Source: Kutzneria chonburiensis
GTDB taxonomy: Bacteria > Actinomycetota > Actinomycetes > Mycobacteriales > Pseudonocardiaceae
Assembly (NCBI RefSeq): GCF_028622115.1
Contig: NZ_CP097263.1
Span: 3,286,001-3,350,000, forward strand
Reading direction: 5' to 3'
DNA length: 64,000 nt
Part shown: one piece after another, positions 36,103-64,000 of the stretch
Numbering within the stretch: position 1 is the stretch's first letter
How the letters are laid out: each line of letters opens with the position of its first letter
Program-made: the position numbers and the translations under genes
The notes under the pieces: generated by a model
Database searches by the model: none
Seen by the model: the letters and a program-made list of their open reading frames with translations, nothing else
Told to the model about the DNA's origin: nothing

Positions 36103-36137
36103 CGACTGAGGGGCCGGTATCACCGGCCCCTCAGTCG
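36103..36137. terminator. Bidirectional terminator between protease gene and biosynthetic operon
   Basis: CGACTGAGGGGCCGGT (36103-36118) pairs perfectly with 36122-36137 around a 3-base loop. It ends inside the last codons of the flavin reductase gene on the minus strand, so it ends transcription from both sides. Confidence 0.75.
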
Positions 36138-36619
36138 GCGAGGCGACGAAACCGACTGGCATGGAACACAAGCGGCGCGGTGTCGGCGTCAAAGGCCAAG
36201 CGGTGCACGGAAAGCAACGCCAGATGATGGTCGCCGGCGACGATCTCACGGTGCGGGGAGCATTCCAGCCAGGCACTCGCGCCGGCGAGCAACACGGCAC
36301 CGTCATCCGTTGACCACCAAGGAAGCCCGGCAAAACGATCAGCCGTACGGGAAGCCAGCCGGCGGCACATGTCCTCGTGACCACTGGCCAGAACGCTGAT
36401 ACCGATACGAGGTACACACCGCAGCAACGGCCAACTGCCGGACGTGGTCGCTATGCAGACCGAAACCAGCGGCGGATCCAGCGACACAGAAGTGAAGGAG
36501 TTGGCGGCGAGGCCGATCGGCTCCCCGGCAACAAGACCGGCGACGGCGGTGACCCCGGTCGGGAAAGCGCCGAAGACCTGGCGGAGCGTCGTGGGATCGA
36601 GGTGCTGAGCCAACGTCAC
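36131..36619 (-). CDS. Flavin reductase (HpaC/ActVB-like)
   Basis: 162 residues from a GTG start that overlaps the preceding stop by GTGA. The sequence LRQVFGAFPTGVTAVAGLVAGEPIGLAANSFTSVSLDPPLVSVCIA...WPLLRCVPRIGISVLA is a full-length flavin reductase-like domain, binding FMN at the NSFTSVSLDPPL loop. It would supply reduced flavin to a luciferase-type monooxygenase. As last gene of operon A it is the partner of the monooxygenase at 48857-49909, matching the BtrO/BtrV pairing of butirosin. Confidence 0.92.
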   Translation of the reverse strand: MTLAQHLDPTTLRQVFGAFPTGVTAVAGLVAGEPIGLAANSFTSVSLDPPLVSVCIATTSGSWPLLRCVPRIGISVLASGHEDMCRRLASRTADRFAGLPWWSTDDGAVLLAGASAWLECSPHREIVAGDHHLALLSVHRLAFDADTAPLVFHASRFRRLAD

Positions 36620-36942
36620 GGGACACGCTCCGGTGTCGCGAGAATGGACGAGAGGACAACGGCATCCGCGCAGTCGGCGTCGACGATGACCACGCGGCAG
36701 CCGGCACGGGCATAGGCGGCGAGTTCCCGAGCGACGATCATCGGGTCGCCGACCAGATAGTGCCCCAGCCGATGCGTACGAGCGTCGACACCGGCCAGCC
36801 AGCGGACGTCGGCGGCGGTCCGGGCCATGGTCCGCAGCATGCGGTCGGCCCGGTTGAGCGGCAACCGCTGGTAGGCGGCGAGCCAGGCCTCGTCCTCCGA
36901 CCCGCGGACGACGAGGCCCAGCCGCACGACCGGCGCGGTCAT
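36616..36942 (-). CDS. C-terminal fragment of a luciferase-family (SsuD-like) monooxygenase
   Basis: 108 residues, fully open from ATG 36942 (overlapping the NRPS stop as TGATG). The segments VRLGLVVRGSEDEAWLAAYQRL and HYLVGDPMIVARELAAYARAGCRVVIVDA match the C-terminal quarter of SsuD-like FMNH2-dependent monooxygenases; the N-terminal two-thirds with the barrel and flavin site is absent. It stays in the overlapping chain of operon A, so it may be translated as a free-standing subdomain, or it is a decayed gene held in the operon. It could help the complete monooxygenase at 48857. Confidence 0.6.
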   Translation of the reverse strand: MTAPVVRLGLVVRGSEDEAWLAAYQRLPLNRADRMLRTMARTAADVRWLAGVDARTHRLGHYLVGDPMIVARELAAYARAGCRVVIVDADCADAVVLSSILATPERVP

Positions 36943-39900
36943 CAGGCCCCGTCCGACACTTCCGCGACGAGCGTGGCAATGGTGTCCCACAACGACCGGG
37001 GCGTCCGGAACATGTCGACGATCTGGAAGTCGTCCGGAATGGTGATGCCGTAGTTCTGCTCGATCGCCACGAGCAGCCCGACGGTCCCGAACGACCCCAG
37101 CCCGGAGTCGGACAGCGGCACGTCCGCGGTGAATTTCCCTTGGAAGCCAACGGTATCCAGCGCGTTGCGCAGCAACGCCTCGAATTCGTCGTCCCACGGC
37201 CGCTCCCCCGCCGGCTCCGCGACGGCCACCGGCGCGGGCAGCCGATCACGGTCCACGGCACCATCCGCAGTCAACGGCCAGTCCTCAACGCGGATCAGCA
37301 CGTCCGGGATCAACGTCCGAGCCAGCCGCCCAGCAGCCAGCGCCCGCCGCAGGGCGTCCTCATCAAACGCAGCACCCTCCACCACACGGACGTAGCCGAT
37401 GAGCTTGTCGTTACGCAGCAACACAAAGCTGTCCGACACCGACGGCTGCGCGTCGAGCAGCTCCCGCGTCCGGTACAGCTCAACGGCCTCGATCGGCCCC
37501 AGCTTCTCCACCGTGCCGTCGTCCCGAAACCGGGCGAGCTCCCCTGTTCGCCCTTCGGGACCCCACAACTCCCCGACCACGCCCGTAGCCACCGGCCGCT
37601 GCACGTCGTCGAGCACCTGCTCGGGCCCCGACCGAAGCTCGGCCGCCGGCAGGCACGGCGCGTCGGCGGATCCGTCCGGGCCGAGGGACATCTCCTCCAA
37701 CACCGTCCGGTACAGGCTGACCAGCCGGTCGGCGGCGGCCCGGCTCAGGCAGTGGTTGGTGGTGTTGAGCTTGAGCAGCCCGACGATGGTGAAGACGTGC
37801 AGCGCGAACTCGTTGTCGTTGTCGTTGAGGGTCCGGTCCTCCTCGATCAGCTCCCGGTCGACCTGGTGGAAGTCGAGGTAGTTGAAGAACACCTCGAGCA
37901 GCCGCCCGCCCGGGTCGGCCTCCTGCTGGATGACCTGCATCGGGAAGACCCGGTGCGGCCACATCCCGGTCAGCCCGTCGTACACGGCCCGCACCAGCTC
38001 GCCCCACGTCCGCACGCCGCCAGGCATCGGGAACGGCAGCGTGTTCAGGTACATGCCCAGCACCCGGTCCGCGCCGACGACCTCGGGCCGGGCGTCGCAG
38101 ACGAGTCCGGTGAAGAACTCGCGCCGGCCGCTGATCATGCTCATGACCTTGAGGTGCGCGGCCAGCAGCACCGCCTTCATCGACGTGCGGGTCACGCTGG
38201 CCAGTCGGCGCAGGTCGGCGTCCAGGTCACGGAAGTCGACCATGTGCTGGTACCGGTCGCGCGGCGTCTCCGGGCCGTCCCGCCAGGCCGACGGCAGCAC
38301 GGCATCCACCCGGCCTTCGACCACGCCACGCCAGTAGTCGCGGTCGCGTTCCGACTGCCGCGCCGCCGCCTCGGACGCGATGTAGTCGGCGTACCGGAAG
38401 GGCACCGGATCCGGTTCGACGGGCGTGCCGCCGCCACGAATCGCTTGGTAGCCGGTGAGAATCTCCATCAGCATGGTGTGGAAGCTCCAGCCCTCCAGGA
38501 CCGGATGGCATTCCGTGATGGTGATCCACCAGTGCGGCGAGTCGTCCGAGGTGTGCGCGGCCACGCGGATCAGCGGCGCGACGGCCAGATCCATGGACCG
38601 GCCGCGTTCCTGCGCCGCGAACGCCGTCATCTCGGGCAGCCAGCCGTCCGGGCCGACCTGGTGGTGGTGCAGGCCGACGGCAATGGTCGCCTTGCGGTGC
38701 ACCAGTTGCAGCGGCGTCGAGTAGCTGTTCAGGTCGAACGTCGTGCGCAGCACCTCGTGCCGATCCACCACGAGCTGCACAGCTTGTTGCAGCGCAACGG
38801 TATCCAGCCGCACTTCGTCGCGGATCAGGTAGGACGTGCTGTCCTGGTACGTGTTGACGTCCGGCCGGGCGCGCAGCTCGATCAGCATGCCGAGCTGCAT
38901 CGCGGCCAGCGGATAGGCGTCCACGACGTCGTCCGGCAGCGCGGCCCGGTCCTCGGCGGTGATCTGCGCGAACGGCTCGACCAGCGCGAACTGCTCGGAC
39001 GGGCCCTGCTGCGCCGCACAGGCCTGGGCCAGCTCCTCGATGGTCTGGTGCTCGAAGATGTCGGCGGCGGACACGTCCAGCCCGTCGGCCTTGAGCTTGC
39101 CGGCCAGGGCCACCGCCCGCAGCGAGTCGCCGCCGACGTCGAAGAAGTTGTCCCGGACGTCGACGTTGTCGGTCGCCAGCACCTCGCACCACGTCCGATG
39201 GATGCCGGCCAGCAGCTCCGCCGGCACGCTGACCTGCGGCGCGGCATCGGCAATCTCAGCCACCCGACGTTCCGGCAGCAAGCCGAGCAGCCGCCCGTGG
39301 ATCTGGGCTAACGGCTCCCCCGCATCGGCGATCACGGCGTCGAACAGCGCCTCGAAGTAGGCCGCCCAGCCGCGGGCTGTCGTCTCGTCGATCACGGCGG
39401 CGGCGTACTCCAGCACCGCCGACAGCTCCGTGCCCGGGCCTTCGAGCACGTGCAGGGTGAGGTCGAACTTGGCCGCCGGCTCGGCGGACAGGCCGAGTTC
39501 CTCGGTGCGCAGGCCCTCGAACCGGAAGGCGCTCGGCTGGTCGGCCGCGTCCATGTCGAAACCGGCCTGGAACAGCGGATTCGTGCCGGTGCCGCGGGCC
39601 GGGTTGACCTCGTCGACGACCAAGACGAACGGGGCCGTCCGGTGGTCGAGGGCGTCAAGGAAGCATTCTCTGACCTGAGTCAGAAGATCCGCGAAGCTCT
39701 GGTCCTTCTCGTGCCACGACCGGACGACGACGGTGTTGACCAGGTAGCCGATGAGGTCGTCCAGCTCGGGGACGGTCCGCGCCGACACCGGCACGCCGAC
39801 GGTCACGTCGTCGCTGCCGGAGATCTTGGCCAGCAGCGCGTGATACGCCGCCAACAGCACCATGTACGGCGAAGCGCGATGCTCGGCCGCCAACGCCAGC

Positions 39901-40664
39901 ACGGCTTCCGCGGTCGCCGGCTTGATCGCCACGTCGACCACGCCGCCACGCCAGTCGGGCTTCGCCGTCCGCGCCCGGTCCAGAGGTAACGGTAACTCCG
40001 TTACGTCGGCCAGGGCATCCCGCCAGTAGTCCAGGTCCGGCCGCAGCGCCCCGCTCGCCTTGGCGGCGATCTCCCAGGCCGCGAAGTCGGCGTACTGAAC
40101 GTCCACATCGGACAGTTCGCGCCCCGTGTACACCGCGCTCACCTCGGCGGCGATCTGTTGGTACGACACAGCATCGCAGGCGATGTGGTGGATCGTGACG
40201 ACCACGAGATGCAGCTCGGGATCGACCCGCAGCACAGTAACCCGGACCGGGTGCTGCGCGGTGAGATCGAACGGCTTGGTCCGCTCCCAGTCGGCGATCT
40301 GCCGGGCCCGGTCCTCGCCGCCGGCAACGTCGATGATCCGCAGTTCGAACCGCCCGGCCGGGTCGACGGTCTGCACCGGCTCGCCGTCGTCGGCGTACCG
40401 GGTCCGCAGGATCTCGTGCCGGGCAACGACTTCCTCCCACGCCCGGCGCAGGCGTTCGACGTCGAGCGGCCCGGTCAGGCGCAGCACCCAGCTCATCAGG
40501 TAGGCCGGGCTCGCCGGGTCGATCTGGTGCAGCACCCACATCTGCCGCTGGCCGGCCGACAGCGGCAGCGGCCGGCTCCGGTCGGCCGCCGGGATCGTGC
40601 GGCGCGCAGCGGCGGCCTGCAACCGTTGCTGGACAAGGGCTTTCAGCTTGCCGTCGAGCGCCAT
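36942..40664 (-). CDS. NRPS, C-T-C-(remnant A)-T, without a working adenylation domain
   Basis: 1240 residues from the ATG at 40664 (TGATG overlap with the upstream NRPS). The first condensation domain (about 33-450) has HHIACDA at 159-165. A carrier (about 478-553) has Ser514 in FFDVGGDSL. A second C domain (about 565-985) has ECHPVLEGWS, with first His replaced by Cys and Asp by Glu; His720 is kept. Residues about 1010-1140 match only the C-terminal part of an A domain (TGELARFRDDGTVEKLGP...) and end in DGAVDRDRLP, where the catalytic Lys of the usual NGKVDR is Ala. A last carrier has Ser1191 in SGLGSFG. Amino acids must be supplied in trans. Confidence 0.92.
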   Translation of the reverse strand: MALDGKLKALVQQRLQAAAARRTIPAADRSRPLPLSAGQRQMWVLHQIDPASPAYLMSWVLRLTGPLDVERLRRAWEEVVARHEILRTRYADDGEPVQTVDPAGRFELRIIDVAGGEDRARQIADWERTKPFDLTAQHPVRVTVLRVDPELHLVVVTIHHIACDAVSYQQIAAEVSAVYTGRELSDVDVQYADFAAWEIAAKASGALRPDLDYWRDALADVTELPLPLDRARTAKPDWRGGVVDVAIKPATAEAVLALAAEHRASPYMVLLAAYHALLAKISGSDDVTVGVPVSARTVPELDDLIGYLVNTVVVRSWHEKDQSFADLLTQVRECFLDALDHRTAPFVLVVDEVNPARGTGTNPLFQAGFDMDAADQPSAFRFEGLRTEELGLSAEPAAKFDLTLHVLEGPGTELSAVLEYAAAVIDETTARGWAAYFEALFDAVIADAGEPLAQIHGRLLGLLPERRVAEIADAAPQVSVPAELLAGIHRTWCEVLATDNVDVRDNFFDVGGDSLRAVALAGKLKADGLDVSAADIFEHQTIEELAQACAAQQGPSEQFALVEPFAQITAEDRAALPDDVVDAYPLAAMQLGMLIELRARPDVNTYQDSTSYLIRDEVRLDTVALQQAVQLVVDRHEVLRTTFDLNSYSTPLQLVHRKATIAVGLHHHQVGPDGWLPEMTAFAAQERGRSMDLAVAPLIRVAAHTSDDSPHWWITITECHPVLEGWSFHTMLMEILTGYQAIRGGGTPVEPDPVPFRYADYIASEAAARQSERDRDYWRGVVEGRVDAVLPSAWRDGPETPRDRYQHMVDFRDLDADLRRLASVTRTSMKAVLLAAHLKVMSMISGRREFFTGLVCDARPEVVGADRVLGMYLNTLPFPMPGGVRTWGELVRAVYDGLTGMWPHRVFPMQVIQQEADPGGRLLEVFFNYLDFHQVDRELIEEDRTLNDNDNEFALHVFTIVGLLKLNTTNHCLSRAAADRLVSLYRTVLEEMSLGPDGSADAPCLPAAELRSGPEQVLDDVQRPVATGVVGELWGPEGRTGELARFRDDGTVEKLGPIEAVELYRTRELLDAQPSVSDSFVLLRNDKLIGYVRVVEGAAFDEDALRRALAAGRLARTLIPDVLIRVEDWPLTADGAVDRDRLPAPVAVAEPAGERPWDDEFEALLRNALDTVGFQGKFTADVPLSDSGLGSFGTVGLLVAIEQNYGITIPDDFQIVDMFRTPRSLWDTIATLVAEVSDGA

Positions 40665-43600
40665 CAGGCCTCCTCCCCGGTCTCGAGTTCCGCCTGCATG
40701 AGCCGCTCGATCTCGGCGGCCAAGCCGGCTGCCGTCGGCTGGTCGAAGAACGACCGCATCGAGACGTCCACGTCGAACGTCGTCTGCACCCGCCACAGCA
40801 GGCGGGCCACCAGCAGCGAGGTGCCGCCCTTGGCCAGCACGTCGTCGTCGAGCTCGATGTCCTCGCGCTTGAGCAGCTCGCGGATGAACTGCAACGCCGC
40901 CTCCTGGAGCGGACTTCGCTTCTCCGTCAGCACGGCACCCACCTCCAGGTCGGGATCCTCGGCGAAACGCTCGGCGAGCGCCCGCAGTTCGGTCGCCAGG
41001 CTGGTCGCCGTGGCCTTGTCGTAGAGCGCGGACGCGTATTCCAGGGCGCCGCCGTAGCGGCCGTCCGCCGTCGGCCACACGGTGAGCGACAGGTCGGTCC
41101 GGGCGACCGTCCAGGCCTCGCCGAGCAGCTCGCTGTCCCGCTCGTGGCGCTGCTGCCCGACCAGGTCGTCCCCGGCGAGCGTGAAATAGGCCTGGTACAA
41201 CGGGGTTCGCGACAGGTCGCGGCCGGTCGACACCGCGTCCACCACGGCTTCGAACGGGGCCGCGTGCCGGGCAAAGCCTTCCCGGCAGGCGTGTTCCACC
41301 TCGGCCAGCGCCTCGGCGAACGTCAGGTCCGGCGTCAGGCCGGCGCGGATCACCACCACGTCGATGAACAGCCCGACCAGGTCGTGCAGCTCCGGACGGG
41401 TCCGGCCGGCATGCGGCGATCCGACGCCGAAATCCCAGCTGCCCGCCGCCCTCGCGAGCAGAATCGTCCACAGGGTAAGGAAAACTACGTACGGCGTCGC
41501 CCCGGCACTGCGCCCGATGGCCAGCAGTTCCGCCGCCGGCAGGTCGACGCCGACCGCGGCGCCGTCGATGCTGCGCCGGGCGTCCCGTGTCCGCATGGTC
41601 GGCAGTTCGAGCACCGGCAGGTCGGCCAGCGTCTCACGCCAGTAGGCGAGCTGCTCGGCCAGCAGCTCCTTGGTGACCTGATTCCGTTGCCAGGCCACGG
41701 CATCGACGTACCGCAGCGGCAACGCCGGCGGCTTTGCGCCGGCCAGAAAGGAACGCAGCTCCTGCTCCAGGATCCGCGCACTCCAGCCGTCACAGATGAT
41801 GTGCTGACACACCAACAGAAGCAGCTGCTCATCGCCGCCGTCACGGACCAGCGTCGCCCGGAACAGCGGCGCCCAGCGCAGGTCGAAGCCGTAGGACAGC
41901 TCCCGGGTGACGATCTTGCCGACCTGGTCCGTCGTCGTGTCGACGCATCGCAGGGGCACCTCGACCCACGGTTCGACCACGGCCACCAGCCCGTCGGCGT
42001 CCATCGAGTACCGCGTCCGCAGCACCTCGTGCCGGGCCATGAGCTCGGCCAATGCCGTCTCCACAGCCTCCTCGGCGACGTCCGCCGGCAGCCACACCAG
42101 CATCGGCAGCAGGTATTCGGGGCTGCCGGGGTCCATCTGATCCAGCAGCCAGAAGCGCTCCTGAGCGTGCGACAGGGCCAGGCGGGCGCCGGCCGGCAGC
42201 ACCTCGATCGGCTGCGCCTCGACCGCCTTGCTCAGCAGCCGCGCCTGGTCCCGAACGGTCGACGCATAGTGCAACTCACGGAAGTCGAGGGCCAGTCCGG
42301 ATGCCTCGGTCAGTGCGGCGGCGAGCCGGGTCATCAGCAGCGAATGCCCGCCCAGCCGAAAGAAGTCGTCGTCAAGGCCGATCTGCTCCACGTCGAGCAG
42401 CTGCCGCCAGGCCGCCAGCACGATGCGTTCCTCGGCGGTCGTCGCGCCAGTGGTCGGCGTACCGGACGACCAGTCCGGTTCCGGCAGCCGCGCCCGGTCC
42501 GTCTTGCCGCTGGACGTGCGGGGCAACGCATCCACCGTGGTCACGATGGTCGGCACCAGCGCCGACGGCAGCCGTTCCCGCAGGTGGGCCGTTAGCCCGT
42601 CGGTCCGCGACGCCACCACCCAGGCCGCGAGCCGTTGCGCGCCATGCGGGTCGGTGACCGCCTTGACCGCGGCCTCGACGACCTCGGGATGCGACTCCAG
42701 GGCCGCCTCGACCTCGCCCGGCTCGACCCGGACGCCGTTGATCTTGACCTGGCCATCGGCCCGGCCGGCGAACTCCAGCGCGCCGTCGTCAAGGATCCGG
42801 ACCATGTCCCCGGTTCGGTACCGCCGGGAACCGGGGGGACCGTCCGGATCGGGCCCGAAGCGCTCGGCCGTCTGCGCCGGATCGCGGTGATAGCCACGGC
42901 CGACGCCGGCGCCACCGGCATACAGCTCGTCGTCCACCACCTGGACACGGGTGTTGTCGATGGGCCGGCCGATCGGCACCGGACCGGTCTCCTGCGCCCG
43001 GTCGAACCACGCCGACAGGACGTCGATCGAGCACTCGGTGGGCCCGTACGTGTTGAGGATCCGCACGTCCACCCGCTCCAGCACGCGCTGGCACAGCTCG
43101 GCCTGCAACGCCTCGCCGGCCGAGCAGATCACCCGCAGACTCGCGCAGGAGGAAAGATCGGCCTCGACGGCCAGCAGCCGCAACATGGTCGGCACGACCT
43201 GCAACACGGTGATCTGGCGCTCCCGGATCGACCGCACGAGCTCGCCGGCGTCCCGCCCGGCCGCAGCCCGGCCGAAGGTCACCGCCGCGCCGCAGATCAG
43301 CGGCGCGAAGATCTCCCAGCCGGCCGCGTCGAAGGTCAGCGGCGTCTTCTGCAGCACCCGGTCGTCGGCGGTCAGCCCGAGCGTCCGCACGCCCCACTGC
43401 ACCCGGTTGGCGATGCCTTCGTGCTCGACGACCACCCCCTTGGGGCTCCCCGTCGAGCCTGAGGTGAAGATCATGTACGCCGCTCGGCGGGCCGTCGTCA
43501 GCCGGTACGGCAGCGGCACGAAGTCGGTGGTGCCGACCAACTGCGTCACCGTGACACCGAAGCCCAGCCGATCGGCCGCCCGCTGATCGTCGACGATGAT

Positions 43601-55260: not shown

Positions 55261-57118
55261 GGTCTTCCCCTGTTCGCACGACGGCGGCGGCGAACGTGCC
55301 GCCCTGGCCGGCCGATGCCAGCAACACCGTGTCGCCCGGTGTGGTCGCCCCCTCGGCGCGCGCGGTCGCCAGGTTGACGAACGGATCGGCCGAGAAGCAG
55401 TGCCCCATCCGCGGGATGTTCTCCAGGTAGATCCGGGTCAGCGGCAGGCCGAGCAGCCGGGCGGTTTCGCTCCACGAGAACCGGTTCACGTTGTGCGGCA
55501 ACACCAGTGACACGTCGTCGAGCGTGATCCCGGCGTCCTGCACGGCATCCCGCATGACCGCGGCGAGTGCCGGGACGTAGCTCTCGTGGTAGCGGCCCTG
55601 CTGCTCCGGCGTCATGTCGCCGGCCGCGTGGAACTGGCCGAGCGTGCGCTGCGCCAGGCCCAACACCGTGTCGCCGGGGCCGTCCAACGACACCAGGGCG
55701 GCCGCGGCGGCGTCGCCGAGGATGGTGGTGTTCGGAATGTGTTGCATCACCGACGACACCACCTTCTCGCCGATGAGGATCAGTGCGGTGCTGCCGGGCG
55801 GTTCGTCGCGGAGCAGCGCCTCGACTGTCTTCAGCGCGTACAGGCCGGTGACGCAGCTCTGATGGGCCATGGTGAACGCCCGCGCGTCGTCGAGACCGAG
55901 CTTCTCCCGCACGGTGTCCATGTGGCGCAGGTACGGCGGCACGATGTGCTGCACGGTGTGCGCGTGGACGACGTAGCGGACCAGCGAGCGGTCCGTGCCG
56001 CCGAGCGCCTCCTCGCCGGCAGCGAGCAGGATGTCCACCACCGACAGCGGGCCGACGGTGGTGATCCGGTCCAGGCCGAAGAACCGGGTGAACAGCCGGA
56101 CTTCCTTGGCCGACAGGTCGAGCGGGTCACGCAGGTCCGGCACCGTGAAGCTGTCCTCGGGCACGAACGGCACGATCTTACGCAGGCGCAGCACAACGGC
56201 CCCGTTCCCGGCGACGCACCACTCCAGCACCGCCATCGCGCTGTGCATCTTGTTCTCGGCCTGGTCGAAGGCGATGCTGCGCGGCCCGTCGAGCACCTCG
56301 GCCACGACCTCCTCGCCGCGGTGGGCCGGCAGGTCGTGCATGAACACGGCGTCCGGGAAGCGGTCCATCAACTCGGTCGTCACCTGGAACGGCGCGAACA
56401 CGGTGCGCCAGTGGGGATCCGGCTTGGTGGTGCCGGTCGTCTGCCACCGGGTCGTGTAGACGACGTCGAACATCGACAGGTCATCGAGATCGTGCTGTTC
56501 GTGCACGATGGCACCGCTGGAGGCCGCCAACTTCGCCGCGCGCTCACGGATGTCTTGCGTGAGGCCATATCCCGGCGGCGTACGCAGTTCCAGGTGCGTG
56601 CCGCGGTAGCGGGTGAGGCCGAGCGCAAGCGCCGCGGCGGTGTTGTTGCCCTCGCCCACGTAGAGGATGCGCAGGCCCTCGATCTCGCCGAAGCGCCCGG
56701 CCAGCGTGGTCAGGTCGGCCAGTGCCTGGGTCGGGTGCTCGTCGGCGCTCATGGCGTTGACCACGGCCATTCGGTCCTGGTCGGCCCAAGCCCGCATTTC
56801 CTCGGGGTCGTCGGCCGTGCGGGCGACCAAGGCGTCGAGCATGCGGGAGAACACGCGGCCGGTGTCCTCGCTGCTCTCCCCCGTGTTCAACTGAAGGTCG
56901 TCGGGGCCGAAGGCGATCACGTTCGCACCGAGCCTGAGCGCGGCCGCCGAGAAGGCGGTCCGGGTGCGGGTCGAGGTCTTGCGGAAGTAGATGCCCACGA
57001 CCTTGCCGGCCAGCGGGCTGTCCGGCCGTGACCGGGACGGTTCCGCGCCGCGCGCGACGATGTCGTGCAGCTCGTCGTCGGACAGGTCGTCCAGCGAGAT
57101 CAGATGCCGTGCTACCAC
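55253..57118 (-). CDS. Carbamoyltransferase-KASIII fusion protein
   Basis: 621 residues from GTG 57118. Residues 1-305 are an ornithine/aspartate carbamoyltransferase: carbamoyl phosphate site SxRTR at 49-53, HPTQALADL at 128-136, VGEGNNTAAALALG, and HDLPAHRGEEV at 261-271, where the ornithine-binding Cys of HCLP is Asp262. Residues about 308-621 are a ketoacyl-synthase III: Cys422 in AHQSCVTGLYAL, His542 in VLPHNVNRFSW, and His573 in MGHCFSADPF where Asn is usual. No stop or start separates the halves. It lies between the diaminopropionate genes and the ATP-grasp gene. I infer carbamoylation of diaminopropionate, followed by acyl transfer. Confidence 0.92.
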   Translation of the reverse strand: MVARHLISLDDLSDDELHDIVARGAEPSRSRPDSPLAGKVVGIYFRKTSTRTRTAFSAAALRLGANVIAFGPDDLQLNTGESSEDTGRVFSRMLDALVARTADDPEEMRAWADQDRMAVVNAMSADEHPTQALADLTTLAGRFGEIEGLRILYVGEGNNTAAALALGLTRYRGTHLELRTPPGYGLTQDIRERAAKLAASSGAIVHEQHDLDDLSMFDVVYTTRWQTTGTTKPDPHWRTVFAPFQVTTELMDRFPDAVFMHDLPAHRGEEVVAEVLDGPRSIAFDQAENKMHSAMAVLEWCVAGNGAVVLRLRKIVPFVPEDSFTVPDLRDPLDLSAKEVRLFTRFFGLDRITTVGPLSVVDILLAAGEEALGGTDRSLVRYVVHAHTVQHIVPPYLRHMDTVREKLGLDDARAFTMAHQSCVTGLYALKTVEALLRDEPPGSTALILIGEKVVSSVMQHIPNTTILGDAAAAALVSLDGPGDTVLGLAQRTLGQFHAAGDMTPEQQGRYHESYVPALAAVMRDAVQDAGITLDDVSLVLPHNVNRFSWSETARLLGLPLTRIYLENIPRMGHCFSADPFVNLATARAEGATTPGDTVLLASAGQGGTFAAAVVRTGEDHG

Positions 57119-58116
57119 CGCGCCACCTCCGCGAAGAAGTCCGGTACCGCCTGGGCGCAGCCGGTCGCCACGCCGGTCGTGAAGATCTCCAGCCCGACCG
57201 CGATGTCCAGCACACCGAGCCCGAACGGCGAGAAGATGCGCGGCTTGTCCCGGCCGAGCGTGATCTCGCCGAGCAGCAGCTCGGCCAGCGTGCCGTCGAT
57301 GAAGTCCCGGTGTCCGAGCTGCTGCTCGGCCAGGTGCGGCGACGTGTCGGCGTTCAGGCAGTGATCGACGTCGTCGAGTACGTTGTGAGCGGCGGCAATG
57401 ATGTCCGGGCCGATATCGCGCAGCGACACGTTGAGCACCGTTTGGCCGGGCGCAAACGCTTCCGGGTCAACGATGTACGGCTCGCCGGCGGTCGTGGCGA
57501 GCACCACGATGTCGGCCCGGTCAACCGCATCGGCCAAATTCGTACCAACAGAACTGCTGTAGCCCAACGACTCCGTGTACCGGGCGGCCTTGCCGGCGTA
57601 GTCGGCCACGGCGTCGTGGATCACGACTTCGGAGATCTCCCAGTCCAATGCACGCAGGAACTCCAGGATGTTGCGCGAGATCACGCCCGCGCCGACGACA
57701 GCGACCTTCCGCGCCACCCGAGAGCCGTGCAGCGCCTCCGCCCCGAGCACGGCCGATGCCGCCGTCCGCGCGGCGCTGATCTGCGCCGCTTCGAGGCAGG
57801 CGAACGGGTAGCCGGTCTCGAAGTCGTTGAGCAGCAACACGGCCGAGGCCCGCGGGATGTTGCGGGAGACGTTGTCCGGGAAGCTGCCGATCCACTTGAT
57901 ACCGGCAACGCCGGGTTCGCCGCGCACCAGCGCCGGCAGGGCGATGATCCGGGCGTTCGGCTTCTCCGGGAACCGCAGGAAGTAGCTGCGCGGGTTGATC
58001 GTCTCGCCGCGGTGGTGGGCGAGGTAGGTGTCCCGGACGCGGGCGTACAGCTCCGGCCGCGACTTCTCGATGACGGCACGGATGTCCTTGCCGCCCAACA
58101 CATGGAACGAGAACAC
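57112..58116 (-). CDS. sbnB: SbnB-like 2,3-diaminopropionate synthase subunit
   Basis: 334 residues from GTG 58116. Ornithine cyclodeaminase/mu-crystallin family: Rossmann core RVARKVAVVGAGVISRNILEFLRALDW and SVGTNLADAVDRADIVVLATTAGEPYI, with INPRSYFLRFPEKPNARIIALPALV and GVAGIKWIGSFPDN in the N-terminal part. SbnB oxidises N-(1-amino-1-carboxyethyl)-glutamate to release L-2,3-diaminopropionate, 2-oxoglutarate and NADH. It follows SbnA by 7 bp and overlaps the next gene by 7 bp. Confidence 0.95.
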   Translation of the reverse strand: MFSFHVLGGKDIRAVIEKSRPELYARVRDTYLAHHRGETINPRSYFLRFPEKPNARIIALPALVRGEPGVAGIKWIGSFPDNVSRNIPRASAVLLLNDFETGYPFACLEAAQISAARTAASAVLGAEALHGSRVARKVAVVGAGVISRNILEFLRALDWEISEVVIHDAVADYAGKAARYTESLGYSSSVGTNLADAVDRADIVVLATTAGEPYIVDPEAFAPGQTVLNVSLRDIGPDIIAAAHNVLDDVDHCLNADTSPHLAEQQLGHRDFIDGTLAELLLGEITLGRDKPRIFSPFGLGVLDIAVGLEIFTTGVATGCAQAVPDFFAEVARW

Positions 58117-59267: not shown

Positions 59268-60650
59268 ATGCAACCTCCGGCCATCCGAAAGACTGGACGT
59301 GAACTCACGCTCGCCCAGCAGGCGCTGTGGTTTCTCCAGGAGCTCGCGCCGGACAGCAGCGCCTACAACGTGTCCGGCGCGGTGAACCTGCATTTCGAGG
59401 TCGACGTCGAGCTGATGGCGACGGCGGTGCGGCGGACGATCGCCGCGCATGCCGTGCTGGACTGCGTGTTCCGGCCGGTCGCCGGCGAGGTCCGCCGCCT
59501 GCCCAGCCGTACCCCGTTCTCGTTGGACGTGCACGAGCTGGCGCTCAAGGACGACAAGCTCGAGGAGTTCGCGCTGGGCCTGGTGCGGCGGCCGTTCCGG
59601 CTGGCCCGGGACCGGCCGATCCGCATCGCCTTGCTGCGGCGGGAGAACGGCCCCGACATCCTGCTGCTGGCCGCGCACCACATCGTCATGGACATGGCCT
59701 CCCAGCTGCTGACGTTCCGCGAGATCCTGTCCACGTACTCGGCACTGCGCGCCGGCACCGAACCCACTCCCACGGCCGCCGCGGAGTTCGACGAGTTCGT
59801 CGACCGGCAGCGGACGTATCTGGAGTCGTCGAAGGCCGACGCGGCGCGGAAGTACTGGCAGGGTCAGCTGACCGACGTCCCGGACAACGAGATCCCCACC
59901 GACCTGCCGCGGCCCGACGTGTACCAGTTCGCCGGCTCCGCGGTCGAGTTCGGGTTGTCGGGCAAGCTCATGGCTGATGTCGAGCTGGCGGCATCAGCCC
60001 GGAACACCACGACGTTCGCGTTCCTGTTCTCGGTGTTCCAGCTGCTCCTGCACGTCTACAGTAGACAGACGGATCTGCTCATCGGCTACCCCGCGACGCT
60101 GCGGGCCGGCAGCCGGTTCCGCGAGTCGATCGGCTACTTCGTCAACACGCTGCCGTTGCGCGCGCGCATCGACCCGGACGCCTCGTTCGACACGTTGCTG
60201 GGCAACACCATCGACCAGTTGTGGCGCGGGCTGATGCACCGGCAGTTCCCGTTCGCCCTGATGCCGCGGCTGGTCGACGCCAAGCGTGAGCCCGATCGCG
60301 CCGGCCTGATCGAGGTGATGTTCGTGCTGACGGCCGAGGATCCGGCCGACCCGCTCGCCGCCTCGCTGGCCCCGGGCGCCCGGGTCGAGCACGCCGGGCT
60401 CGAGCTGTCCGAGTACTACCTGCCCCAGCAGCAGGGCCAGTTCGACCTGACGCTCCAGGTGCAGCACAGCGGCGGCCTCGCGCGCGCCGAACTCAAGTAC
60501 AACACCTCGCTGTTCACCGAGCAGACGGCCCGCAGCCTGGCCGACGACTTCGTCGACCTGCTCGACGCCGCGGCCGCCGGCGCCCTGCCGGCCCGGCTGC
60601 GGGAGATCACCGACGGCGGTTACACCCCGGTTGAGGCGGAGGAAAGATGA
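59268..60650 (+). CDS. Stand-alone NRPS condensation domain
   Basis: 460 residues. A complete C domain: LTLAQQALWFLQELAPDSSAYNVSGAV, AAHAVLDCVFRP, the active motif AAHHIVMDMAS (HHxxxDM, last Gly is Met), YPATLRAGSRFRESIGYFVNTLPLRARI and FPFALMPRLV. Free C domains act on a carrier-bound donor and acceptor in trans. The downstream carrier starts inside its stop (ATGA overlap). It would couple the ligase-loaded amino acid to an NRPS-bound chain, probably on the A-less NRPS at 36942. Confidence 0.93.
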   Translation: MQPPAIRKTGRELTLAQQALWFLQELAPDSSAYNVSGAVNLHFEVDVELMATAVRRTIAAHAVLDCVFRPVAGEVRRLPSRTPFSLDVHELALKDDKLEEFALGLVRRPFRLARDRPIRIALLRRENGPDILLLAAHHIVMDMASQLLTFREILSTYSALRAGTEPTPTAAAEFDEFVDRQRTYLESSKADAARKYWQGQLTDVPDNEIPTDLPRPDVYQFAGSAVEFGLSGKLMADVELAASARNTTTFAFLFSVFQLLLHVYSRQTDLLIGYPATLRAGSRFRESIGYFVNTLPLRARIDPDASFDTLLGNTIDQLWRGLMHRQFPFALMPRLVDAKREPDRAGLIEVMFVLTAEDPADPLAASLAPGARVEHAGLELSEYYLPQQQGQFDLTLQVQHSGGLARAELKYNTSLFTEQTARSLADDFVDLLDAAAAGALPARLREITDGGYTPVEAEER

Positions 60651-60910
60651 GACAGGACACGGAAATCGACCCGGCCCGACTCGCGCAGGTGCGCGACGTG
60701 GTGGCCGAGGTCTTCTCCGCCGAACCGGCCGCGGTCGCGGCGGCGGGCTCGTTCGAGGACGACCTCGACACGAACTCGCTGCTCGCCGTGGACCTGTGCG
60801 TCCGCCTCGAGGCGGATTTCGGCATCAGCATCAGCAACGACGAACTGCCGCAGCTCATGACCGACCTGCGCACCGTGTACGAGTTCGTCGCCGACAAGGC
60901 GAAGTGGTGA
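60647..60910 (+). CDS. Stand-alone carrier protein of the aa:CP ligase
   Basis: 87 residues, ATGA overlap with the C-domain gene. The phosphopantetheine Ser44 lies in SFEDDLDTNSLLAVDLCVRLEADFGISIS. Aminoacyl carrier proteins next to seryl-tRNA-synthetase-like ligases in other bacteria have this size and context. It receives the amino acid from the ligase gene that follows. Confidence 0.93.
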   Translation: MRQDTEIDPARLAQVRDVVAEVFSAEPAAVAAAGSFEDDLDTNSLLAVDLCVRLEADFGISISNDELPQLMTDLRTVYEFVADKAKW

Positions 60911-61767
60911 TGGGGACGATGATCGAGACGACCACCCTGGCGGATCCGATCGAGCGGCTGGCCGACGGCGGCTGGCTGCGGCCGACCGGCGGGCCGGGAC
61001 TGCTCAGCTTCACGCCGAAGTTCGAGACCGTGATGGCCGGCCTGCAGGCCGCGCTGACCGCGGCCGATCCGACGGGATCGGCCGGCCCGACCTGGCACCC
61101 GCCGGTGGTGCCGCTGGCCAATATCGAACGGGCCCAGTACACCGAGGCGTTCCCGCACCTGCTGGGCTCCGTGCACGCGCTCTCCTCCCAGGACCAGGAC
61201 GCCGACCGGACGCCCACCGATGTCGTTCTCGCGCCGGCGGTCTGCTACTCCGTCTATCCGGAGGTGGCCAACAGTGTCGTCGAGGGGCCGCTGTACTTCG
61301 ACGCCGCCGGCTACTGCTACCGCCACGAGGCGACCGCCGAGCTCGGCCGGTTCCGGTCCTTCCGCATGCGGGAGTTCGTCATCGTCGGTGACGCGTCGGC
61401 GGCCTGGCAGTGGCGCGACGCCTGGATCGCCCGCTGCGAGGCGCTGTTCAGCCGGCTCGGGCTGACGCCGGTCGTGACGCCGGCCAGCGACCCGTTCTTC
61501 GGTCCCGGCGGCCGGTTCATGAAGTCCAGCCAGATCGAGCAGAACCTGAAGTTCGAGTTCGTGGTGGCGCTGCACGACGACGACCCCGGCACGGCCATCG
61601 CCTCGGCCAACTGCCACAAGGAGCATCTGGGCGAGCGGTTCGCCATCGACCACGCGGACGGCGGCCCGGCGCACAGCTCCTGCATGGCGTTCGGCCTGGA
61701 GCGGACGGCGTTGGCGCTGATCCACGCGCACGGCGACGACCTGGCCGACTGGCCGACACTGGTCTGA
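60910..61767 (+). CDS. Amino acid:carrier-protein ligase (class II aaRS-like)
   Basis: 285 residues from ATG 60910 (TGATG overlap). It matches the catalytic core of class II synthetases without a tRNA-binding domain: PAVCYSVYPEVANSVVEGPLYFDAAGYCYRHEATAELGRFRSFRMREFVIVGD (motif 2) and SCMAFGLERTALALI (motif 3), plus SANCHKEHLGERF, which holds zinc- or substrate-binding residues. Such SerRS-like ligases activate Gly, Ala or a related small amino acid and load it on a dedicated carrier. The carrier gene directly before it supports this role. The amino acid cannot be read from sequence alone. Confidence 0.92.
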   Translation: MGTMIETTTLADPIERLADGGWLRPTGGPGLLSFTPKFETVMAGLQAALTAADPTGSAGPTWHPPVVPLANIERAQYTEAFPHLLGSVHALSSQDQDADRTPTDVVLAPAVCYSVYPEVANSVVEGPLYFDAAGYCYRHEATAELGRFRSFRMREFVIVGDASAAWQWRDAWIARCEALFSRLGLTPVVTPASDPFFGPGGRFMKSSQIEQNLKFEFVVALHDDDPGTAIASANCHKEHLGERFAIDHADGGPAHSSCMAFGLERTALALIHAHGDDLADWPTLV

Positions 61768-61770
61768 GCA

Positions 61771-61811
61771 CGAGAACGGGCCGGCGGTCTTCGACCGCCG
61801 GCCCGTTCTCG
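61771..61811. terminator. Bidirectional terminator with 19-bp stem
   Basis: 61771-61789 (CGAGAACGGGCCGGCGGTC) is perfectly complementary to 61793-61811 with loop TTC, between the convergent ligase and regulator genes. Confidence 0.8.
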
Positions 61812-61816
61812 TTGTG

Positions 61817-63001
61817 TCAGAAGCCGACAACCTGCTCCTGGAGATCCAGTGCCACCTCATCCACATAGGGCGCGAGCCGGTAGCGGTAGCGGTCCGTGGC
61901 GTCGGCGACGATCAGCGACGCCTCCAGCAGCTCCGACAGCAGCATCAACGGGTTCCGCACCGGTATCGGCAGCACGTCGTCCACGGTGAACAGTGGCGTC
62001 GGCAGCATGGCCAGGCTGCGCAACAACGTGCGGTGATCCTCGGTCAGCAGGTCCAGGTCCCACCGCAGGCTCTCGGCCAGGGAACGCTGATGCCGCAACA
62101 AGGCGTGGTCGTTCGTCCACAGCATCTGCGTCGACGGGCCGTGGGCCAGCAACGCCGTCACCGGGATCGTCCGCAGCCGTTCAGCGGCGAACTCCAGCCA
62201 GCGCGGCAGGCCACCGAGCCGCCGGCACAGCTCGGCGACCAGCGGGAGTTCGTCGGCCGACCACGCGTCCGCGCCCACGTGCCGCAGCATCAGCTCTTCG
62301 CCTTCCACCGTGAGCGGCCGGATCTCGCAGTTGACACCGAGGCGCTCCGTGAGCTTGCGGCGGGCCGTGGTCAGCACGTGCAGGCCGAGGTAGCGGCCGA
62401 GCAGCTCCTTGGTGACGGCGGTGACGCTGTCCGGAATGTGTTCGGCGTTGTCCAGCACCAGCAGCAGGTCGGCCGCCCGCTCGTCGGTCCGGTCCCAGCC
62501 AAGCTGCTGGCGCACGCGCTGCCGGACCGTGGTGGTCTGGTCACCGAGACGTTCCGACGGGACATCGCCGAGCTCCACGACGACAACGCCGTCGCGGAAA
62601 CTCGGGCCGACCTCGGCGGCAATGCTCAGTGCGAGGCGCGTCTTGCCAACGCCGCCGGGGCCGATGAACGTGGTCAACCGGTTGGCCCGCACCGTCTGCG
62701 CCAGCCGCTCGTGCTCCGCGCGCGGACCGACCAGCGCCGTCGGCAATGGCTGCGGACCACGCCATCGAAGCTGGTCCGGGGCCGGCTCAGGCGTGTCCTT
62801 GACGCCGAGCGCGTCGGCCAGCAGATCGACCGACGAGCGGCGCGGCGACTGCACCCAGCCGAGCTCCAGGTTCCGGATCGTCCGGACGCTCAGTCCGGAC
62901 CGCTCGGCCAGCTCCTCCTGCGTCCAGCCGCGTTCCTCGCGCAGCGCCGCGATCCGCGTCGCGTCCCAGGTGTTCCGGCGGATTCCCAGCACAGGCATCA
63001 T
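61817..63001 (-). CDS. XRE-HTH regulator with NB-ARC-like ATPase domain
   Basis: 394 residues from ATG 63001 (a second ATG follows at once). An XRE HTH (IAALREERGWTQEELAERSGLSVRTIRNLELGWVQSP, about 17-53) precedes a STAND-type ATPase: Walker A LTTFIGPGGVGKTRLALSI (about 110-128) and Walker B ADLLLVLDNAEHI. The C-terminal part is helical and short; the long TPR region of related regulators is missing. It overlaps the ABC gene by 4 bp and so is co-transcribed with it. Likely the cluster regulator. Confidence 0.9.
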   Translation of the reverse strand: MMPVLGIRRNTWDATRIAALREERGWTQEELAERSGLSVRTIRNLELGWVQSPRRSSVDLLADALGVKDTPEPAPDQLRWRGPQPLPTALVGPRAEHERLAQTVRANRLTTFIGPGGVGKTRLALSIAAEVGPSFRDGVVVVELGDVPSERLGDQTTTVRQRVRQQLGWDRTDERAADLLLVLDNAEHIPDSVTAVTKELLGRYLGLHVLTTARRKLTERLGVNCEIRPLTVEGEELMLRHVGADAWSADELPLVAELCRRLGGLPRWLEFAAERLRTIPVTALLAHGPSTQMLWTNDHALLRHQRSLAESLRWDLDLLTEDHRTLLRSLAMLPTPLFTVDDVLPIPVRNPLMLLSELLEASLIVADATDRYRYRLAPYVDEVALDLQEQVVGF

Positions 63002-64000
63002 CGGTACCCTCTGGATTGAAGTTCGTAGAGCTCGGCGTACATGCCGCCGCCGGCCATCAGTTCCTGGTGGCTGCCGACCTCACGCACCCGGCCCTGGTCG
63101 AGCACGACGATCAGATCGGCCATGCCGACGGTCGAGAACCGGTGCGACACCAGCAGCGTGACGGTGCTGCGCTGCCTGGCCGTACGAGCGGCGGCCGCGA
63201 AGCGCTCGAACAGCATGTGTTCGGTATGGGCATCGAGCGCGGCGGTCGGCTCGTCGAAGACGACCAGCAGCGGATCCGTGCGCATCAGGCCACGGGCCAG
63301 CGCCAGCTTCTGCCACTGCCCGCCGGACAGCTCGACGCCGTCGTCCCACCGGGTGCCCAGCTGCGTCTCCAAGCCCTGCGGCAGGCTCTGGACGACACTG
63401 GAAGCACCGGCTCGTTCCACCGCCGCGCCGACGGCCACCAGGTCGTCGATCCGCGGCAGGTCACCGACGCCGACCGACTCCCGCACCGGGAACTCCAGCT
63501 TGGCGAAGTCCTGGAACGCGGCGGCGCACCGCTGCTGCCAGTGCGCGGTGTCGAATGCAGCCATGTCGGCGCCGTCGACCAGGATCTGCCCGGACTCCGG
63601 CTTGCCGAACCCGCTCAGCAGCTTCACCAACGTCGTCTTGCCAGCCCCGTTGTCGCCGACCAGGGCGACGACCGCGCCGGCCGGCAACCGCACCGACACG
63701 CCGTCCAGCACCGGTTTGCCGGGGTAGCCGAAGCGCACATCCCACAGCTCGATGCCGTCGTGCAGAGTCTCGGGCACGGCCTCGGAGCCGGTGCGTCGCG
63801 TGCCGGCGGCATACTGCTTGAGCCACATGAATCGCTGGCCGACCCTCAGCACGAACAGGAAGTCGGTGCCGTACATGACGGCCGTGCCGACAGTGGACGT
63901 CATCTGCGCCGCCAGGCCCACCACCAGCACGACATCGCCGGCGGTGGCGTTGTGGTTGACGACGTGCATCAGCGCCAGGCCGATCGCGCCGATGTAAGCC
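62998..64000 (-). CDS. ABC exporter, permease-ATPase (partial, 5' end beyond window)
   Basis: The window holds the last 333 residues or so. Parts of the membrane domain (AGDVVLVVGLAAQMTSTVGTAVMYGTDFLFVL) precede a complete ATPase: Walker A ALVGDNGAGKTTLVKL, Q-loop FQDFAKLEF, signature VELSGGQWQKLALARGL, Walker B PLLVVFDEPTAALDA and the His of LLVSHRFSTV. This is a half-size exporter, likely for the peptide product. It is followed by the regulator gene with a 4-bp overlap. The start lies outside the window. Confidence 0.93.
   Translation of the reverse strand, partial: AYIGAIGLALMHVVNHNATAGDVVLVVGLAAQMTSTVGTAVMYGTDFLFVLRVGQRFMWLKQYAAGTRRTGSEAVPETLHDGIELWDVRFGYPGKPVLDGVSVRLPAGAVVALVGDNGAGKTTLVKLLSGFGKPESGQILVDGADMAAFDTAHWQQRCAAAFQDFAKLEFPVRESVGVGDLPRIDDLVAVGAAVERAGASSVVQSLPQGLETQLGTRWDDGVELSGGQWQKLALARGLMRTDPLLVVFDEPTAALDAHTEHMLFERFAAAARTARQRSTVTLLVSHRFSTVGMADLIVVLDQGRVREVGSHQELMAGGGMYAELYELQSRGYR

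What the first reader, a model, noticed from the sequence alone, without database searches (positions are those of the whole stretch)
36131..64000. NRPS cluster combining diaminopropionate, carbamoyl, omega-amino-acid ACP and aa:CP-ligase modules
Three operons supply building blocks by four different routes: SbnA/SbnB diaminopropionate, a carbamoyltransferase fusion, an ATP-grasp/decarboxylase/ACP set, and a synthetase-like ligase with its own carrier and C domain. The NRPS core itself has only two intact A domains for five NRPS carriers (T-TE, A-T-C-T and C-T-C-T), plus two stand-alone carriers. I do not recognise this set as a described pathway.
Basis: partly seen in the sequence, partly recalled or inferred. 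Interest (0 to 1): 0.82.

Follow-up and report, generated by a model that had tools for sequence, protein, structure and literature searches.

The report
Orphan peptide cluster, ureidoalanine plus dehydro-beta-alanine
A soil-type actinomycete carries an unassigned gene cluster, shared in the same make-up with five other sequenced actinomycetes, that most likely builds a small polar peptide from two unusual building blocks (beta-ureidoalanine and dehydro-beta-alanine) whose combination I did not find described.

Summary
In detail: window 36131-64000 is one NRPS cluster (continuing to about 66613) with two intact A domains, five NRPS carriers and two free carriers. The reading 'four routes' needs correction. 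(1) SbnA, SbnB and the carbamoyltransferase form one route: the enzyme carries the published diaminopropionate-transcarbamylase signature (TRWQTTG, HDLP), so the block is L-beta-ureidoalanine. (2) ATP-grasp, BtrK-like decarboxylase, ACP, a KAS III pair and an acyl-CoA-dehydrogenase pair form a cassette, complete in 45 of 80 named loci; by bolagladin/enamidonin precedent it makes a beta-alanyl/dehydro-beta-alanyl unit. (3) An aa:CP ligase with carrier and C domain is separate. The carbamoyltransferase fusion is local: separate genes in 5 of 5 orthologous clusters (Streptomyces x2, Kitasatospora, Actinacidiphila x2). Both A-domain codes (Asn-like, Gln-like) are identical in all six clusters; the last module lacks intact A motifs in all six. 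The window copy has a broken dehydrogenase frame and a remnant of a second luciferase-like gene, so it may be decaying or misassembled. Paper searches in an open library found no described cluster of this content. New variant of a known kind.

The parts
36131..36601 (-). flavin reductase (likely partner of a luciferase-like monooxygenase)
   Evidence: Flavin_Reduct E 1.6e-32; 60-61% match in 2 of 5 relatives, one weaker 39% match, none in 2 in the stretches read
36616..36942 (-). 108-aa remnant of a second luciferase-like monooxygenase
   Evidence: no Pfam hit; aligns at 32-37% to the C-terminal part of a 335-347 aa protein in K. paracochleata and SM10; the K. paracochleata protein is Bac_luciferase E 2.8e-26
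36942..40664 (-). NRPS C-T-C-(A remnant)-T
   Evidence: 2 Condensation, 2 PP-binding; no A3/A5/A10 motif here and in 5 of 5 relatives (sequences read for 3 of the 5)
40664..43909 (-). NRPS A-T-C-T; A code DAWQCATID (Gln-like; proposed beta-ureidoalanine)
43906..44076 (-). MbtH-like protein
   Evidence: PF03621 E 1.7e-20; matched in 5 of 5 relatives, in A. epipremni as the end of the A-domain protein
44073..45908 (-). free-standing A domain; code DLPKIAEVG (Asn-like)
45905..46636 (-). thioesterase (type II-like)
   Evidence: Thioesterase E 1.5e-35; 64-68% in 4 of 5 relatives
46633..47628 (-). T-TE protein
   Evidence: PP-binding and weak Thioesterase; 41-46% in 5 of 5 relatives, a fragment in Tue 6430
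47875..48786 (+). AsnO-family Fe/2OG oxygenase, proposed asparagine 3-hydroxylase
   Evidence: TauD E 2.8e-15; best solved structure asparagine oxygenase 2og5, 261 bits, next clavaminate synthase 153, CmnC 115, VioC 113; 67-73% in 5 of 5 relatives
48857..49909 (-). MupA/Atu3671-family luciferase-like monooxygenase
   Evidence: TIGR04020 471 bits, cut-off 244; 59-66% in 5 of 5
49906..51053 (-). acyl-CoA-dehydrogenase homologue, reading frame broken near a run of C
   Evidence: N part in ORF 49935-51053, C part in another frame; relatives have one open frame of 380-399 aa
51057..51599 (-). second, short acyl-CoA-dehydrogenase-like subunit (ACAD2)
   Evidence: model pLDDT 92.7, Foldseek best hits acyl-CoA dehydrogenases, best E 6.3e-5; 49-58% in 5 of 5
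51596..52387 (-). KAS III-like partner, no Cys in the active-site segment of the window protein (KS2)
   Evidence: model pLDDT 94.9; Foldseek PqsD, FabH, ChlB3; 5 of 44 homologues have a Cys at one column of that segment
52391..52666 (-). free-standing ACP of the cassette
   Evidence: PP-binding E 6e-10
52670..53926 (-). BtrK-like PLP decarboxylase, proposed to act on a carrier-bound amino acid
   Evidence: best solved structure BtrK 313 bits, next diaminopimelate decarboxylase 178
53923..55260 (-). ATP-grasp ligase, proposed amino acid:ACP ligase
   Evidence: PreAtp-grasp, ATP-grasp; 164 relatives in the genome-contig scan
55253..57118 (-). diaminopropionate transcarbamylase (56200-57118) fused to KAS III-like acyltransferase KS1 (55253-56199)
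   Evidence: motifs TTRWQTTG and HDLP; KS1 Cys 86 of 86, Asp 85 of 86, His 76 of 86 homologues; separate genes in 5 of 5 relatives
57112..58116 (-). SbnB
   Evidence: TIGR03944 392 bits
58124..59083 (-). SbnA
   Evidence: TIGR03945 399 bits
59268..60650 (+). free-standing C domain
   Evidence: Condensation E 1.6e-72
60647..60910 (+). free-standing carrier (ACP2)
   Evidence: acyl carrier protein models, best E 2.3e-12 but below cut-off; no match in 1 of 5 relatives, A. epipremni
60910..61767 (+). class-II synthetase-like amino acid:[carrier protein] ligase
   Evidence: PRK07080 E 7e-83 (278 bits, cut-off 357); best solved structure Bll0957-type ligase, 207 bits
61817..63001 (-). HTH-type regulator with ATPase-like part
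   Evidence: HTH_3 E 2.4e-13; 53-59% in 5 of 5
62998..64000 (-). ABC exporter subunit 1 (continues to about 64770; second ABC gene about 64763-66613 beyond the window)
   Evidence: ABC_tran; both matched in 5 of 5 relatives, 65-71% where the frame is whole

Best explanation
An orphan NRPS cluster for a small polar peptide. L-2,3-diaminopropionate is made by SbnA/SbnB and carbamoylated by the diaminopropionate transcarbamylase to L-beta-ureidoalanine. Asparagine is 3-hydroxylated by the AsnO-type enzyme. The two intact A domains load these two residues (Gln-like code: ureidoalanine; Asn-like code: Asn or 3-hydroxy-Asn). In parallel the ATP-grasp enzyme loads an acidic amino acid (most likely Asp) by its side-chain carboxyl on the free ACP, the BtrK-like enzyme decarboxylates it to beta-alanyl-ACP, the KAS III pair transfers an acyl group to or from it, and the dehydrogenase pair makes dehydro-beta-alanyl. 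A class-II synthetase-like ligase loads a further small amino acid on a carrier, perhaps the one whose own A domain has decayed. The luciferase-like monooxygenase with a flavin reductase hydroxylates a carrier-bound residue; TE releases and two ABC subunits export. Shown: gene content, motifs, shared make-up in six clusters, missing A motifs in the last module. Inferred: all substrates, the order of steps, the product.
For: The signature (T/S)RWQTTG + HDLP published for diaminopropionate transcarbamylase (PMC4581275, passages) is in the window and 5 of 5 orthologues; over the 29 proteins read, TTRWQTTG is in 24 and HDLP in 29. Of 24 other loci of this subfamily, 19 hold NRPS sequence and 10 an SbnA relative of at least 40% identity within the stretch read, e.g. 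SbnA-SbnB-MbtH-NRPS-NRPS-transcarbamylase on a Streptomyces plasmid. A codes of type DxxQxAxxD and DL[PT]KxxExG occur in 6 and 9 of 29 A domains of those loci (from 5 and 6 loci; one plasmid gives 2 and 4 of them) against 0 and 0 of 39 in control loci. KS1 keeps a Cys/His/Asp set in most homologues, as reported for AfcL (PMC12186527, passages). AsnO is the best match of the oxygenase. Six clusters with the same make-up.
Against: No product is known to me for any of the six clusters. The dehydro-beta-alanine systems in the papers read load Asp with a VinN-type A domain; here an ATP-grasp enzyme takes that place, and the best characterised relative of the decarboxylase (BtrK) works on glutamyl-ACP, so the unit could be a C4 one. 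No fatty-acyl ligase was seen among the genes scanned in the window cluster, so the acyl donor for KS1 is unknown. That the enamidonin-type loci make enamidonins is my reading of A codes, not shown. The code assignments rest on recalled Asn and Gln codes, and the two could be swapped. 14 of 24 transcarbamylase loci showed no SbnA relative of 40% in the stretch read. The window copy has a broken dehydrogenase frame, only a remnant of the second luciferase-like gene and lacks the small phosphopantetheinyl-transferase-like gene that 4 of 5 relatives have there (family tested in one of them), so this copy may not work.
Confidence: 0.6

Rival explanations
1. The cassette makes a C4 unit: the ATP-grasp enzyme loads glutamate, the BtrK-like decarboxylase gives 4-aminobutyryl-ACP, the dehydrogenases give 4-aminocrotonyl or the luciferase-like enzyme and flavin reductase hydroxylate it, as in the butirosin side chain.
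For: Decarboxylase is closest to BtrK (313 bits); ATP-grasp, decarboxylase, ACP, luciferase-like monooxygenase and flavin reductase are all present; butirosin pathway recalled.
Against: A luciferase-like gene of this kind was the best match in only 6 of 80 stretches with the ATP-grasp gene, one of them at 23%. The cassette also lies beside NRPSs with the enamidonin residue set, whose known products carry dehydro-beta-alanine. The bolagladin decarboxylase BolN is also described as BtrK-like.
Confidence: 0.25
2. The carbamoyltransferase acts on the cassette, not on diaminopropionate: it carbamoylates beta-alanyl-ACP, giving a 3-ureidoacrylyl starter, and the fusion to KS1 reflects that.
For: It is fused to KS1 in the window and adjacent to KS1 in 5 of 5 relatives.
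Against: The same subfamily lies in 24 other loci, in none of which KS1, decarboxylase or ATP-grasp was found, in several directly beside SbnA/SbnB; it carries the diaminopropionate signature; it is a separate gene in the relatives.
Confidence: 0.07
3. A tuberactinomycin-like pathway: diaminopropionate, ureido group and dehydrogenase make beta-ureidodehydroalanine in the peptide, as proposed for viomycin.
For: SbnA, SbnB, a transcarbamylase, an acyl-CoA-dehydrogenase homologue and a module without own A domain are shared features.
Against: The oxygenase is AsnO-type, not VioC/CmnC (261 against 113-115 bits); no capreomycidine-synthase-like PLP enzyme among the genes scanned; the dehydrogenase pair travels with the cassette in many clusters without transcarbamylase in the stretch read (55 of 80 loci have each dehydrogenase, 5 of 80 the transcarbamylase).
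Confidence: 0.08
4. The window copy is a decaying cluster or carries assembly errors, so this strain makes no product.
For: Broken dehydrogenase frame beside a run of C; 108-aa remnant of the second luciferase-like gene; fused transcarbamylase/KS1; A remnant.
Against: The other cluster genes read as open frames and key motifs are kept; A motifs are missing in all relatives too, and the second luciferase-like gene was found in only 2 of 5. Could coexist with the best explanation.
Confidence: 0.3

Closest known systems
Bolagladin pathway (Burkholderia gladioli, BolC/N/O/M/P/Q; PMC7756342, passages)
   Same: Free ACP, BtrK-like decarboxylase, two KAS III homologues and an acyl-CoA dehydrogenase are proposed to make an N-acyl dehydro-beta-alanyl starter for an NRPS
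   Different: Asp is loaded by a VinN-like A domain there, an ATP-grasp enzyme stands here; lipodepsipeptide with citrate-primed fatty acid; no diaminopropionate or ureido residue in the structure reported
Enamidonin / autucedine / olenamidonin lipopeptides (PMC11204786, passages; autucedine paper seen only as a reference)
   Same: Diaminopropionate plus dehydro-beta-alanine; actinomycete loci with the same ATP-grasp cassette, SbnA/SbnB and a DxWExTADD A code (e.g. G777, G778, L105, L138)
   Different: No transcarbamylase found in those stretches; their A codes are absent from the window; fatty-acyl chain
Zwittermicin A and viomycin/capreomycin ureidoalanine route (PMC4581275, PMC6022934, passages)
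   Same: A diaminopropionate transcarbamylase with HDLP and (T/S)RWQTTG
   Different: AsnO-type instead of VioC/CmnC-type oxygenase here; other differences of those clusters only recalled
Streptomyces sp. NBC_01244 plasmid cluster (NZ_CP108489.1)
   Same: SbnA-SbnB-MbtH-NRPS-NRPS-transcarbamylase (70%), A codes DAWQFATID and DLPKVAEVG
   Different: Much longer NRPSs, no KS1, decarboxylase or ATP-grasp match in the 50 kb read; product unknown to me
Butirosin side-chain pathway (BtrI/J/K/O/V, recalled)
   Same: ATP-grasp, decarboxylase, ACP, luciferase-like monooxygenase, flavin reductase
   Different: NRPS instead of aminoglycoside genes; KAS III and dehydrogenase pairs not part of butirosin as recalled

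Membership tests
L-2,3-diaminopropionate transcarbamylase | (T/S)RWQTTG in the 240s loop and HDLP motif | tested here: met
   TTRWQTTG and HDLP in window and 5 of 5 orthologues; signature from PMC4581275
L-2,3-diaminopropionate transcarbamylase | carbamoyl-phosphate motifs SxRT and HPxQ | tested here: met
   STRT and HPTQ
L-2,3-diaminopropionate transcarbamylase | activity on diaminopropionate | not testable with these tools
   needs enzyme assay
dehydro-beta-alanine starter cassette (bolagladin type) | free ACP, BtrK-like decarboxylase, KAS III homologues, acyl-CoA dehydrogenase | tested here: met
   the window's dehydrogenase frame is broken
dehydro-beta-alanine starter cassette (bolagladin type) | VinN-like A domain that loads Asp on the free ACP | tested here: not met
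   an ATP-grasp enzyme stands in that place; so a variant, not a plain member
dehydro-beta-alanine starter cassette (bolagladin type) | dehydro-beta-alanine in the product | not testable with these tools
   no product known
enamidonin-type cluster | NRPS with Dap, Phe, Dap, Gly A domains | tested here: not met
   window codes DLPKIAEVG and DAWQCATID only
tuberactinomycin cluster | VioC/CmnC-type Arg hydroxylase | tested here: not met
   oxygenase closest to AsnO, 261 against 113-115 bits
AsnO-type asparagine hydroxylase | AsnO as closest solved relative within the TauD-like family | tested here: met
amino acid:[carrier protein] ligase | SerRS-like catalytic domain without tRNA-binding domain | tested here: met
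   285 aa, Bll0957-type ligase best structure, 207 bits, type-2 SerRS next with 48
amino acid:[carrier protein] ligase | NCBIfam model PRK07080 at its cut-off | tested here: not met
   278 bits against a cut-off of 357: a relative of that model, not an equivalog by it
amino acid:[carrier protein] ligase | identity of amino acid and of cognate carrier | tested here: inconclusive
   carrier comparison gives no clear partner; ACP2 missing in A. epipremni
butirosin side-chain pathway | glutamate as substrate of ATP-grasp and decarboxylase | not testable with these tools
   decarboxylase closest to BtrK but substrate undecided

The most novel reading that the evidence does not exclude
A peptide assembly line in which residue loading and an amide bond are partly taken over by non-NRPS enzymes: the KAS III pair passes an aminoacyl group (loaded by the class-II synthetase-like ligase) rather than a fatty acid onto or from ACP-bound beta-alanine, and the same ligase replaces the decayed A domain of the last NRPS module, giving a new peptide class that joins ureidoalanine, 3-hydroxyasparagine and dehydro-beta-alanine.
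Probability: 0.2. Interest if true: 0.72.

Novelty: new variant of a known kind. Interest (0 to 1): 0.5.

Why it matters
It ties an orphan cluster family, seen in the window's genome and five named genomes of three further genera (with a fragment in a Micromonospora), to testable building blocks. It points to an ATP-grasp alternative to A-domain loading in the dehydro-beta-alanine cassette that looks widespread (164 relatives of the ATP-grasp gene in one scan). And it proposes A-domain codes for beta-ureidoalanine that one assay could check and that would help to read the many transcarbamylase-bearing NRPS clusters (matches in 63 of 390 family genomes, its own included).

Tried and rejected
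Carbamoylation of the ACP-bound unit as the reason for the fusion: rejected because no KS1, decarboxylase or ATP-grasp match was found in 24 of 24 other loci of the subfamily and the genes are separate in relatives. Tuberactinomycin-like reading: rejected on the AsnO match. First guess that KS2 is a truncated gene: not kept, its model is a confident thiolase-fold domain, though relatives start 10-27 residues earlier. Attempt to find the cognate carrier of the aa:CP ligase by carrier similarity: led nowhere. tRNA and Rfam scans of the window: nothing. KS2 as query in a phylum sample matched only 3 of 396 genomes, its own included, which first suggested rarity; the family sample (78 of 390, own included) and the genome-contig scan showed the opposite for the cassette.

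Paper searches for the content of the cluster or its routes: (0 papers); by compound name. Only an open-access PMC library was searched; supplements and MIBiG were not available; the autucedine and kutzneridine papers were seen only as references. Read as passages only: PMC7756342, PMC12186527, PMC11204786, PMC12843350, PMC4581275, PMC6022934, PMC12400406, PMC10880069; no whole text.

Rows dropped or limits: the search for related loci kept 80 of 164 relatives; many loci are cut at 10 kb flanks or contig ends, so presence counts in the 80 are lower bounds. One of 24 transcarbamylase loci (L208) gave no protein in the motif table; L188 was left out of counts because it overlaps L212. Three of the 29 proteins there show neither motif variant of the 240s loop and two read TSRWQTMG. 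A domains were taken only if they show a YGPTE-like motif, so degenerate ones are not counted; the 29 and 39 A domains are not independent (one plasmid gives 7 of the 29; the 39 come from cassette loci and a few other NRPS loci, some genomes twice under two loci) and the controls are not a random sample. Genes in relatives were called by a simple codon-composition script, which can miss small genes (it missed MbtH in the window).

Full report
WHAT IS THERE. The window lies in a 10.4 Mb single-contig genome of the family Pseudonocardiaceae (inferred: contigs of same-family genomes have the same lengths as named records, e.g. Actinophytocola oryzae 777762, Umezawaea endophytica 244584, Amycolatopsis vastitatis 411806). 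From 36131 to the right end, and on to about 66613 (L005), lies one NRPS cluster.

ORTHOLOGOUS CLUSTERS. One scan of genome contigs with an alignment of the ATP-grasp protein found 164 relatives, 80 kept. Five of the 80 (Streptomyces sp. SM10, Streptomyces sp. Tue 6430, Kitasatospora paracochleata DSM 41656, Actinacidiphila epipremni, A. guanduensis; 66-69% identity of the query protein) hold the transcarbamylase and the same gene order around it. Their wider surroundings contain SbnA, SbnB, transcarbamylase, KS1, ATP-grasp, decarboxylase, ACP, KS2, ACAD2, ACAD, luciferase-like monooxygenase, C domain, aa:CP ligase, regulator, two ABC genes, AsnO, T-TE, A, MbtH, A-T-C-T and C-T-C-T in 5 of 5. 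TE is in 4 of 5 and ACP2 in 4 of 5; the flavin reductase (60-61%) and the second luciferase-like gene are in 2 of 5. Several frames are broken in the draft of Tue 6430. In 5 of 5 the NRPS block lies on the strand opposite to the supply operon, whereas in the window both are on the minus strand. A Micromonospora contig holds a fragment (L123). In 390 family genomes KS2 relatives were found in 78, its own included, the others at 27-42% identity. In 5 of 5 relatives transcarbamylase and KS1 are separate genes; in the window they read as one frame with a short linker.

ROUTE 1, BETA-UREIDOALANINE. A review of transcarbamylases gives (T/S)RWQTTG plus HDLP as the mark of diaminopropionate transcarbamylase, known from zwittermicin and viomycin biosynthesis, against DxxxSMG and mostly HCLP in ornithine enzymes (PMC4581275, passages read; also PMC6022934, passages). 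The window protein and its 5 orthologues read TTRWQTTG and HDLP; over all 29 proteins read, TTRWQTTG is in 24 and HDLP in 29. The subfamily is common: 63 of 390 family genomes, its own included, have a match at E <= 1e-62, and 28 Streptomyces plasmid records carry relatives, those listed at 54-72%. Of 24 such loci, 19 hold NRPS sequence and 10 an SbnA relative of at least 40% within the stretch read; in none was the cassette found. On one plasmid the order is SbnA-SbnB-MbtH-NRPS-NRPS-transcarbamylase. So diaminopropionate and carbamoyl are most simply one route, not two.

ROUTE 2, THE ATP-GRASP CASSETTE. Decarboxylase: best solved structure BtrK, 313 bits, next 178. KS1: over 86 homologues Cys is kept in 86, the Asp of a GH....D motif in 85, the His of PHN in 76, resembling the Cys/His/Asp set described for the acyltransferase AfcL (PMC12186527, passages); CerJ and ChlB3 are among its structure hits. 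KS2 of the window has no Cys in the active-site segment; 5 of 44 homologues have one at a column there; its model (pLDDT 94.9) matches PqsD, FabH and ChlB3. ACAD2's model (pLDDT 92.7) matches acyl-CoA dehydrogenases. All seven parts are in 45 of 80 loci. The bolagladin paper (PMC7756342, passages) proposes the same logic for an N-acyl dehydro-beta-alanine starter. Against it: BtrK itself acts on glutamyl-ACP, and no dehydro-beta-alanine system in the papers read is said to use an ATP-grasp loader.

ROUTE 3, aa:CP LIGASE. PRK07080 (278 bits, below its cut-off of 357), best structure a Bll0957-type ligase. Its carrier is undecided: ACP2 is adjacent, but no match exists in A. epipremni, and the last NRPS carrier sits behind an A region without A3, A5 and A10 motifs in 5 of 5 relatives (three of them read in full). 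Loading in trans has a precedent in capreomycin, there by another module's A domain (PMC12400406, passages).

A-DOMAIN CODES. DLPKIAEVG and DAWQCATID are identical in the window and all 5 relatives. Codes of these types are in 9 and 6 of 29 A domains in transcarbamylase loci (6 and 5 loci) and in 0 and 0 of 39 in control loci; samples are small and not independent. With AsnO present, I assign the Asn-like code to Asn or 3-hydroxy-Asn and the Gln-like code to beta-ureidoalanine, a Gln isostere; the reverse is possible.

STATE OF THE WINDOW COPY. The dehydrogenase frame is broken near a run of C; the second luciferase-like gene is a 108-aa remnant; the small phosphopantetheinyl-transferase-like gene of 4 of 5 relatives is missing (family tested in K. 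paracochleata only). Sequencing error and decay cannot be told apart here.

NOVELTY. Each route is known or close to known. Their union was seen in 5 of 80 cassette loci and 0 of 24 transcarbamylase loci, and no paper found in the searches for it (listings and passages only) describes it. New variant of a known kind.

Noticed in passing
window 32942-34084 (+) and genome 3373485-3374627 (-): Two DUF222-type genes, 93-94% identical in DNA, flank the cluster in opposite orientation; 15 copies of at least 91%, all in the first 3.9 Mb, and one of 78% were listed in the genome.
   Followed up: partly
L010 (G107), with similar gene rows in L035 (G540) and L040 (G499): A different cluster type pairs KS1-ACP-KS2 with an aa:CP ligase; in L010 the neighbours are an AurF-type oxygenase, a phosphopantetheinyl transferase and an LCM methyltransferase (not scanned in the other two).
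   Followed up: no
L053+L032 (G672) and L038 (G617): Cassette versions without ATP-grasp match in which an A domain and a carrier lie near KS1 and KS2, so the loader may be exchangeable.
   Followed up: no
L031, L073, L075, L077, L079, L080, L081, L084 (Amycolatopsis): A conserved larger cluster with the cassette, a second KS1-like gene and a row of small genes of about 117-193 aa recurs.
   Followed up: no
window 28311-31988: nSTAND1 NTPase with ten WD40 repeats, about 1225 aa.
   Followed up: no
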